From: Desulfurococcaceae archaeon
GTDB taxonomy: Archaea > Thermoproteota > Thermoprotei_A > Sulfolobales > Desulfurococcaceae
NCBI GenBank assembly: GCA_023269825.1
Contig: JAGDWI010000001.1
Location: 830,350 to 894,349 of the forward strand
DNA length: 64,000 nt
Reading direction: 5' to 3'
Shown: positions 27,095 through 27,532 of the stretch, in pieces
Numbering within the stretch: position 1 is the first letter of the stretch
Layout of the letters: every line of letters starts with the position of its first letter
The notes under the pieces: generated by a model
The model's input: the letters and a program-made list of their open reading frames with translations, nothing else
Told to the model about the DNA's origin: nothing
The model's database searches: none
Translations under genes and position numbers: made by a program

Positions 27095-27129
27095 ATAAAG
27101 GGAGATGGCGGGGCCCGCCTAGCGGCGGG
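27091..27129 (-). terminator. Hairpin and T-rich end downstream of the tRNA 3' half
   Basis: On the minus strand, a perfect hairpin CCCGCC-GCTA-GGCGGG (27129-27114) is followed by CCCGCC and then CCCTTTATTTTA. It is a plausible transcript end for the 3' half of the initiator tRNA. The distal GCCCCGCC (27114-27107) is also complementary to the leader of the 5' half. Confidence 0.45.
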
Positions 27130-27134
27130 ACTAA

Positions 27135-27174
27135 TAGCGGGGGGTGGATTTTCCTGGGGGATGCCCGCCCCAGG
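27135..27174 (-). tRNA. Initiator tRNA-Met, 3' half (positions 60-73) with pairing leader
   Basis: Minus strand. The leader GGGGCGGGCATCCCCCA (27171-27155) and GGAAAA precede T60-CCACC-CCCCGCT-A73 (27148-27135). CCACC completes the T stem GGTGG and CCCCGCT completes the acceptor AGCGGGG of the part at 27336-27480, including the A1-T72 pair that marks initiators. Its own TATA box (27195-27209) predicts a transcription start near 27174, a few bases before the leader. It reads as a separate trans-splicing half; a 187-nt cis intron is the alternative. Confidence 0.85.
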
Positions 27175-27194
27175 GGATTACTTTAATATAAATA

Positions 27195-27209
27195 GCCTTA
27201 TAAGCTTTT
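27195..27209 (-). promoter_or_regulatory. BRE/TATA promoter of the tRNA 3' half
   Basis: Minus strand GAAAAGCTTATAAGGC, with an A-rich BRE-like run followed by a TATA core centred at about 27200. Start sites about 26 nt downstream would fall near 27174, at the beginning of the pairing leader. It closely resembles the promoter of the 5' half. Confidence 0.6.
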
Positions 27210-27303
27210 CAACGCATTGGTGAGAGCTAATCACGCGTTGGAGTTGTTCATTAATACTAAGACGTTTTATCTGGGGAACTCGTTACGACTAAATCTCAGT
27301 TGT

Positions 27304-27317
27304 AAAAATAGAAGGAA
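27304..27317 (-). terminator. Pyrimidine/T-run after the tRNA 5' half
   Basis: Minus strand TTCCTTCTATTTTT directly follows the pairing trailer of the 5' half. Archaeal RNA polymerase terminates at such T-runs, so the 5' transcript probably ends here rather than reading into the 3' half. Confidence 0.5.
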
Positions 27318-27493
27318 GGAGCGGGCATCCCCCACTTTGAACCACCGACCTCGGGTTCTCCGAGACGGTTTAAACCCGTTCTCTGTGACTCCGAGGGCCC
27401 GGCAGCCCTCTTATGAGCTTCGCGGGAGTAGCCTTTGCGGCGTGCTCCTCCCGCGGGCTACCAGGCTGCCCTACCCCGCTGTTTTGCCCCGCC
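27318..27493 (-). tRNA. Initiator tRNA-Met(CAT), 5' half (positions 1-59) with two cis introns and pairing trailer
   Basis: Minus strand. The tRNA begins at 27480: acceptor AGCGGGG, TA, D arm GGGC-AGCCTGGTA-GCCC, G26, then CGGG. An apparent intron of about 31 nt (27449-27419) precedes GCTCATA with anticodon CAT at 27415-27413. A second apparent intron of about 54 nt (27411-27358) precedes ACCCG-AGGTC-GGTGG-TTCAAA (to 27336). The trailer TGGGGGATGCCCGCTCC (27334-27318) is complementary to the leader of the 3' half. With these boundaries, the 31-39 pair is a mismatch, so exact intron ends are uncertain. The initiator identity rests on A1-T72 and the GGG/CCC-rich anticodon stem. Confidence 0.85.
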
Positions 27494-27515
27494 GTTTTGT
27501 TTTTGTGTATTTTGT

Positions 27516-27532
27516 GGTTTATAAAGGTTTTC
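27516..27532 (-). promoter_or_regulatory. BRE/TATA promoter of the tRNA 5' half
   Basis: Minus strand CGAAAACCTTTATAAACC, a near-ideal BRE plus TATA box centred at about 27521. The predicted start is near 27496, just upstream of the leader GGCGGGGCAAAAC that precedes tRNA nucleotide 1 at 27480. Confidence 0.7.

What the first reader, a model, noticed from the sequence alone, without database searches (positions are those of the whole stretch)
27135..27493. Initiator tRNA-Met apparently encoded as two separately transcribed halves split at position 59/60
Seen: on the minus strand an initiator tRNA runs from AGCGGGG (27480) through TTCAAA (27336), then resumes at T60-CCACC-CCCCGCT-A (27148-27135), 187 nt away. 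The 5' part is followed by TGGGGGATGCCCGCTCC and the 3' part preceded by its complement, 17 bp with one G-U pair. A bulge-helix-bulge-like junction (TTC:GAA between bulges AAAG and AAT) would cut exactly between A59 and T60. A T-run (27304-27308) follows the 5' part, and a TATA box with BRE-like A-run (27195-27209) would start the 3' transcript at its pairing leader. Known: split, trans-spliced tRNAs occur in Nanoarchaeum, Caldivirga and some Desulfurococcales (tRNA-Asp, tRNA-Lys). An initiator split in the T loop is not one I know from Crenarchaeota. Alternative: one long cis intron with an accidental promoter, which would be a possible intermediate on the way to a split gene.
Basis: partly seen in the sequence, partly recalled or inferred. 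Interest (0 to 1): 0.95.

Follow-up and report, generated by a model that had tools for sequence, protein, structure and literature searches.

The report
Initiator tRNA made from two genes
In this archaeon the tRNA that starts protein synthesis is encoded as two neighbouring pieces, each with its own promoter-like sequence and with matching 17-base pairing arms, so the pieces are likely transcribed separately and predicted to be joined afterwards; relatives carry the same gene broken at three different places, seven of them with the pieces on opposite strands or different contigs and many with a homing-endonuclease-like gene in between.

Summary
The initiator tRNA-Met runs on the minus strand from 27480 to 27336 and resumes at 27148-27135. 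The 187 nt between carry 17-bp arms (one G-U), a T-run and a strong sense promoter. Spliced, the pieces give a full cloverleaf.

Separate transcription is likely. A promoter profile trained only on 5' halves puts the best site of 24 of 30 long iMet insertions 20-50 nt upstream of the 3' arm (shuffled maximum 7; antisense 0), with the spacing of 5' promoters. In seven relatives iMet halves broken at 30/31 or 37/38 lie on opposite strands or different contigs, so cannot be cis introns. Breaks at 59/60, the window's site, all have adjacent same-strand pieces, so there the case rests on promoter, arms and analogy. A first profile from the genome's own tRNAs scored the site weakly. No RNA data exist here.

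Nineteen of 32 examined gaps hold an ORF that is LAGLIDADG-like or related to one, in site-specific families; the window's holds none. New variant of split tRNA: initiator, T-loop site, in a clade where mobile endonucleases probably drive splitting.

The parts
27517..27530 (-). promoter of the 5' piece, AAACCTTTATAAAC
   Evidence: read; 5'-half promoters of the family form a consistent profile (124 upstreams)
27487..27493 (-). leader GGCGGGG, pairs with trailer CCCCGCC
   Evidence: cofold; leader/trailer helix in 85 of 107 family loci
27450..27480 (-). exon 1, tRNA positions 1-30
27419..27449 (-). short cis intron at 30/31, 31 nt
   Evidence: comparison with intron-free relatives
27412..27418 (-). 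exon 2, positions 31-37 with anticodon CAT
27389..27411 (-). short cis intron at 37/38, 23 nt
27387..27388 (-). 2-nt exon TC, positions 38-39 (inferred)
   Evidence: needed to restore the G31-C39 pair; same layout in 16 of 110 loci, window included
27356..27386 (-). short cis intron at 39/40, 31 nt (inferred)
   Evidence: spliced product
27336..27355 (-). last exon of the 5' piece, positions 40-59
27318..27334 (-). 5' pairing arm TGGGGGATGCCCGCTCC
   Evidence: 17 bp, one G-U
27304..27308 (-). T-run after the 5' arm, candidate terminator
   Evidence: the 25 nt after 5' arms average 0.67 pyrimidine against 0.48 in other blocks of the insertions, but T alone only 0.34 against 0.30
27194..27207 (-). 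promoter of the 3' piece, AAGCTTATAAGGCT, predicted start near 27172
27155..27171 (-). 3' pairing arm GGGGCGGGCATCCCCCA
27135..27148 (-). 3' exon, positions 60-73
27107..27113 (-). trailer CCCCGCC, partner of the leader
   Evidence: cofold

Best explanation
The initiator tRNA of this archaeon is encoded in two adjacent pieces, each preceded by its own promoter-like site, that are likely transcribed separately and predicted to be trans-spliced between nucleotides 59 and 60 of the T loop. The 5' transcript would start near 27496, run through three short cis introns to position 59, and end after the 5' arm near the T-run. The 3' transcript would start near 27172, at its own pairing arm, and carry nucleotides 60-73 plus trailer. 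The 17-bp arms, and a leader-trailer helix, would hold the two RNAs together; the splicing endonuclease would cut the relaxed BHB at A59 and T60, and the RNA ligase would join them (inferred from archaeal tRNA splicing). The two-piece layout, arms, promoter-like sites and complete cloverleaf after splicing are shown in the sequence; separate transcription, cleavage and ligation are inferred. The likely origin is a short 59/60 cis intron, as in G005 of the same genus, whose hairpin loop was opened by an insertion; in relatives such insertions carry site-specific homing-endonuclease-like genes, and the window's would be a version without one.
For: Profile trained only on 124 5'-half upstreams: the best sense site of the whole insertion lies 20-50 nt upstream of the 3' arm in 24 of 30 insertions against 1.97 expected if uniform, 0 of 30 antisense; shuffled spacers mean 2.5, maximum 7 in 200 rounds; one representative per genus and site 15 of 21 against mean 1.76, maximum 6. 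Spacing 32-39 nt in 23 of the 24, as for 5' promoters (median 35). Window site score 14.3, spacing 36, rank 1 of 174. For 59/60 alone the best site is in range in 6 of 8 insertions, and rank 2 or 3 in the other two. Physically separate iMet halves: G054, G037, G152, G154 on opposite strands, G047, G161, G163 on different contigs, arms 11-17 bp, best site at spacing 29-32 in 5 of 7; one arm pair is C-G in G163 where G047 and G161 have T-A, on two different contigs. Insertion lengths are bimodal: 17-62 nt, then 147-1616 nt. Control loci with rRNA introns: 3 of 13 with the best site near the 3' end against 17 of 21 tRNA insertions over 600 nt, Fisher p 0.0014. Cloverleaf restored.
Against: No RNA data. 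A first profile, from 40 of the genome's own tRNA upstreams, gave this site only 3.76 and preferred another site in the insertion (8.0, 70 nt from the exon); that profile includes a CCC tail of tRNA leaders. 6 of 30 insertions lack the best site in range; G054 has its best site at spacing 16 and only a weak one in range, G154 has none worth the name. 3 of 13 rRNA introns also have one near the 3' end. All 59/60 breaks found are same-strand neighbours. T content after the 5' arms is hardly raised (0.34 against 0.30), so termination is weakly supported. BHB is relaxed. Read-through splicing cannot be excluded.
Confidence: 0.8

Rival explanations
1. One long cis intron of 187 nt at 59/60, removed from a single transcript; the internal promoter is accidental or minor.
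For: Pieces are adjacent, in order and on one strand; short cis introns with similar edges occur at 59/60 in relatives, 31 nt in same-genus G005; in A. pernix tRNA-Asp a full-length RT-PCR product was also detected (PMC3218864 Results; PMC4307357 passages).
Against: Internal promoter far above chance and correctly spaced; insertion lengths bimodal with a gap between 62 and 147 nt; same anatomy in physically separate halves. The range given in 2011 for archaeal tRNA introns was 11-129 nt.
Confidence: 0.15
2. A mobile endonuclease intron at 59/60 that has lost its gene, spliced in cis, with the promoter a leftover of the lost gene.
For: 59/60 insertions of relatives carry LAGLIDADG-like ORFs.
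Against: No endonuclease remnant in the window spacer. The promoter sits about 60 nt before the 3' exon and points out of the insertion; in relatives the corresponding site lies downstream of the sense ORFs, so it could not drive them.
Confidence: 0.04
3. A relic: a broken iMet copy, with a working gene elsewhere or in an unassembled part.
For: The assembly is 96.6% complete in 3 contigs, and 4 of 44 tRNA hits were not fetched for typing.
Against: Complete cloverleaf and 17-bp arms; single 5' and T-arm pieces; same dehydrogenase - iMet - tRNA synthetase neighbourhood as iMet of same-genus relatives.
Confidence: 0.01

Closest known systems
[quoted passage not shown] 2011, PMC3218864)
   Same: Adjacent halves on one strand, internal promoter predicting a start 20-25 nt before the end of the would-be intron, G/C-rich arms
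   Different: Joined at 37/38, 121-nt spacer, elongator tRNA; here initiator, 59/60, 187 nt, with three more introns in the 5' piece
Split iMet of Nanoarchaeum equitans (Table 1 of PMC3218864)
   Same: Initiator tRNA from two loci
   Different: Joined at 37/38; halves far apart; a reduced symbiont genome
Permuted iMet of Thermofilum pendens (PMC3218864)
   Same: Initiator, BHB junction at 59/60
   Different: 3' half lies upstream and both halves are thought to share one transcript; here the order is normal
Split tRNA-Lys(CUU) of Staphylothermus (PMC3218864)
   Same: Same archaeal branch; joined at 30/31, as in G054, G037, G152 and G154 here
   Different: Other tRNA and position than the window
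Archaeal rRNA introns with LAGLIDADG endonucleases
   Same: Introns with homing-endonuclease genes, present in the same order
   Different: Removed in cis (recalled); 3 of 13 delimited here have a promoter-like best site near the 3' exon

Membership tests
split (trans-spliced) archaeal tRNA | the pieces together give one complete tRNA | tested here: met
   ARAGORN cloverleaf of the spliced 74-mer
split (trans-spliced) archaeal tRNA | complementary G/C-rich leaders | tested here: met
   17 bp, one G-U
split (trans-spliced) archaeal tRNA | own promoter for the 3' piece | tested here: met
   by sequence only; weak under the first profile
split (trans-spliced) archaeal tRNA | bulge-helix-bulge at the junction | tested here: inconclusive
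   UUC:GAA by eye, cofold leaves a 7x7 loop
split (trans-spliced) archaeal tRNA | separate half transcripts and joined product seen as RNA | not testable with these tools
   no transcript data
permuted tRNA | 3' half encoded upstream of 5' half | tested here: not met
   order is 5' then 3'
homing-endonuclease intron in tRNA | endonuclease ORF in the insertion | tested here: not met
   no ORF of 60 aa or more inside the window's insertion and no remnant; met in relatives
cis intron-containing tRNA | single continuous precursor | not testable with these tools
   no transcript data

The most novel reading that the evidence does not exclude
In one archaeal order the initiator tRNA gene is a repeated target of three site-specific families of LAGLIDADG endonucleases, at 30/31, 37/38 and 59/60. 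Invasion opens the hairpin of a short cis intron, the 3' piece gains its own promoter, and the gene becomes a split tRNA; later the endonuclease is lost (window) or the pieces are inverted or scattered. Stages from cis intron to unlinked halves survive in living relatives, and G037 would be made from three pieces. This would be a late, mobile-element origin of split tRNAs caught in the act, including the first T-loop split.
Probability: 0.6. Interest if true: 0.94.

Novelty: new variant of a known kind. Interest (0 to 1): 0.87.

Why it matters
Whether split tRNAs are ancient relics or late derivatives is an open debate (PMC3218864 Discussion, read; PMC4390854 passages). Here one essential tRNA shows short introns, adjacent halves, halves with endonuclease-like genes between them, inverted halves and halves on different contigs within one order, with different forms even inside single genera. 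That makes the intron-to-split route, and a mobile agent for it, directly testable. It also shows how an essential tRNA can be missed: ARAGORN and Rfam do not report it in this window.

Tried and rejected
First promoter profile from 40 own tRNA upstreams: weak score for the site; I then trained a profile on 124 iMet 5' halves, and both are reported. The automatic duplex over-extended the arms; arms were redone as longest continuous stems. L100 looked unresolved but is an intact iMet with another T-arm sequence; L114 has only a short 30/31 intron. G003 of the same genus seemed to have only a 3' end: its iMet is partly Ns and continuous at the T loop. G114 lacks a T-arm piece in an 87% complete genome and is left undecided. 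A search for an endonuclease remnant in the window spacer found nothing. Permuted gene rejected by order. Of 129 parsed 5'-half loci, deduplicated on their first 150 nt, 25 had a long insertion, 84 short or none, 20 were unresolved (contig ends, opposite strand, other contig, or beyond the stretch fetched); one of the 20 (L200) contributed a resolved 30/31 insertion to the 30. L050 (G031), which shows 30/31 and 59/60 breaks but has no 5' piece on its contig, was not counted. Not every genome of the 155 matching was fetched, so these are counts of loci examined, not of the order. For the rRNA control 20 loci were fetched; 13 introns in 11 of them could be delimited. Only 4 of the 20 were run against Rfam and 3 of the 4 confirmed as rRNA; the rest were assigned and oriented by blastn similarity, and the presence of an endonuclease gene was not checked intron by intron. 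Intron ends there are approximate.

Full report
The observation. On the minus strand the initiator tRNA-Met runs from A1 at 27480 to A59 at 27336, stops for 187 nt, and resumes at T60, 27148-27135. ARAGORN and Rfam do not report it. Compared with intron-free relatives of the same genus (L057, L058, L060), the 5' part holds three more interruptions: 30/31 (31 nt), 37/38 (23 nt) and, inferred, 39/40 (31 nt) with a 2-nt exon between the last two. Joining the five exons gives a 74-nt tRNA-Met with a complete cloverleaf, differing from the relative only by U38. The genome has one exact 5' piece and one T-arm piece; of the 44 other tRNA hits, 40 were fetched, two of these have anticodon CAT and none contains AGCGGGGT. 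The locus has a 2-hydroxyacid dehydrogenase gene upstream and a class II tRNA synthetase gene downstream, as in same-genus relatives.

The genus. None of the seven other genomes of the genus shows a long T-loop insertion: G001, G002, G004 and G006 have no interruption, G003 is continuous at the T loop but partly Ns, G007 has only 30/31, and G005 has short interruptions including 31 nt at 59/60. The long form is therefore probably derived within the genus.

The order. The 44 named stretches with leader and 5' piece come mostly from Desulfurococcales, Desulfurococcaceae and Acidilobaceae assemblies, a few labelled Thermogladius, Thermodiscus, Sulfolobales, Thermoprotei or Thermoproteota. The 5' piece matched 155 of 214 genomes of the order. 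In 129 distinct loci parsed, 84 had short or no introns, 25 had at least one insertion over 100 nt, 20 were unresolved. Lengths are bimodal: 17-62 nt, then 147-1616 nt, taking all three sites together.

Promoters. A 14-nt profile was trained only on 124 upstreams of 5' halves. Over 30 long insertions from 26 loci the best sense site of the whole insertion, up to 1616 nt long, falls 20-50 nt upstream of the 3' arm in 24 (expected 1.97 if uniform; 0 of 30 on the antisense strand). Shuffling the spacers gives mean 2.5 and maximum 7 in 200 rounds; with one representative per genus and site the count is 15 of 21 against mean 1.76, maximum 6. The spacing, 32-39 nt in 23 of the 24, agrees with that of the 5' promoters (median 35). 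The window's site scores 14.3, above 74% of 5' promoters, at spacing 36. Against this, a profile from the genome's own 40 tRNA upstreams scored it only 3.76 and preferred another site, and 6 of 30 insertions have no best site in range.

Halves that cannot be cis introns. In G054, G037, G152 and G154 the halves lie on opposite strands; in G054 about 2.4 kb with several long ORFs lie between. In G047, G161 and G163 they lie on different contigs, with more than 20 kb of contig downstream of each 5' half. All seven have complementary arms of 11-17 bp, and 5 of 7 have the best promoter site at spacing 29-32; G054 and G154 do not. In G163 one arm pair is C-G where G047 and G161 have T-A, a compensating change between unlinked loci. 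These cases are at 30/31 and 37/38. At 59/60, arms of L216 and L217 differ by two compensated pairs, but all 59/60 breaks found are adjacent and same-strand.

Controls. Thirteen introns delimited in rRNA-like loci of the same order, fetched because they hold LAGLIDADG matches, served as cis controls; 3 of 13 had the best site 40-95 nt from the 3' end, against 17 of 21 tRNA insertions over 600 nt (Fisher p 0.0014). Rfam confirmed rRNA in 3 of the 4 loci tried; the others were assigned by similarity.

Genes between the pieces. ORFs of 120 aa or more were found in 20 of 32 gaps examined, the 30 insertions plus two in G037. One is an archaeal ATPase gene. Five of the other 19 were run against Pfam: both 59/60 ORFs pass the LAGLIDADG_3 cut-off, the three others match LAGLIDADG_3 and Hom_end below cut-off. 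By blastp the five 59/60 ORFs match each other and nothing else in the set, the six 30/31 ORFs all match each other, and the eight 37/38 ORFs other than the ATPase all match each other, with weak similarity between the last two groups. Those 30/31 ORFs are antisense to the 5' piece, the 37/38 and 59/60 ones are sense. The window's spacer has no ORF of 60 aa and no detectable remnant.

How it works. The two RNAs would pair through the arms and through a leader-trailer helix (GGCGGGG with CCCCGCC), predicted in the cofold and present as a perfect helix of 6 bp or more in 85 of 107 loci (212 of 2140 shuffled trailers). The splicing endonuclease would cut at a relaxed BHB; similar edge sequences flank short 59/60 cis introns in relatives.

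Known work. Chan et al. 2011 (PMC3218864; abstract, Results and Discussion read) describe adjacent halves with an internal promoter in A. pernix tRNA-Asp, and permuted iMet at 59/60 in T. pendens. A 2015 paper (PMC4307357, passages) notes that cis splicing may also occur in A. pernix. Sugahara et al. 2012 (PMC3293823, passages; authors' name recalled) propose integrase-type mobile elements as a source of tRNA disruption; the word homing does not occur in its text. I also saw passages of PMC10714607, PMC3655853 and PMC4390854 and passages and one section of PMC8450103. My ten searches listed no report, by title, abstract start or the passages I read, of a 59/60 split tRNA or of endonuclease genes in archaeal tRNA genes. 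Three of the listings were capped (20 of 283, 20 of 37, 20 of 32), most papers were seen as listings only, and most subscription papers are not held, so absence from print is not shown.

Noticed in passing
window 27356-27411 and 15 relatives: 16 of 110 iMet loci lack ACCCCG at the 3' exon and read as two introns, 37/38 and 39/40, around a 2-nt exon; this would be an unusually small exon.
   Followed up: partly
window 27487-27493 with 27107-27113: Leader-trailer helix around iMet in 85 of 107 loci, with different sequences such as GGGGCCGTT/AACGGCCCC in L056; role in end processing unknown.
   Followed up: partly
L047 (G037): iMet in three pieces: 1-30 on the plus strand, 31-59 and 60-73 on the minus strand, with an endonuclease-like ORF in each interval; possibly a tri-split initiator.
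   Followed up: partly
L218, L220, L221 and L219, L242 (one genus): One genus holds iMet halves 147 and 242 nt apart in two species and on different contigs in three; a graded series at 37/38.
   Followed up: partly
L049, L062 (relatives): Further short intron near 64/65 in the 3' strand of the T arm of iMet.
   Followed up: no
L297, L300, L289 (rRNA-like loci): Three introns there also have their best promoter-like site 49-78 nt from the 3' end; unexplained.
   Followed up: no
L092 (G116): Between the two iMet pieces lies an archaeal ATPase gene instead of an endonuclease.
   Followed up: partly
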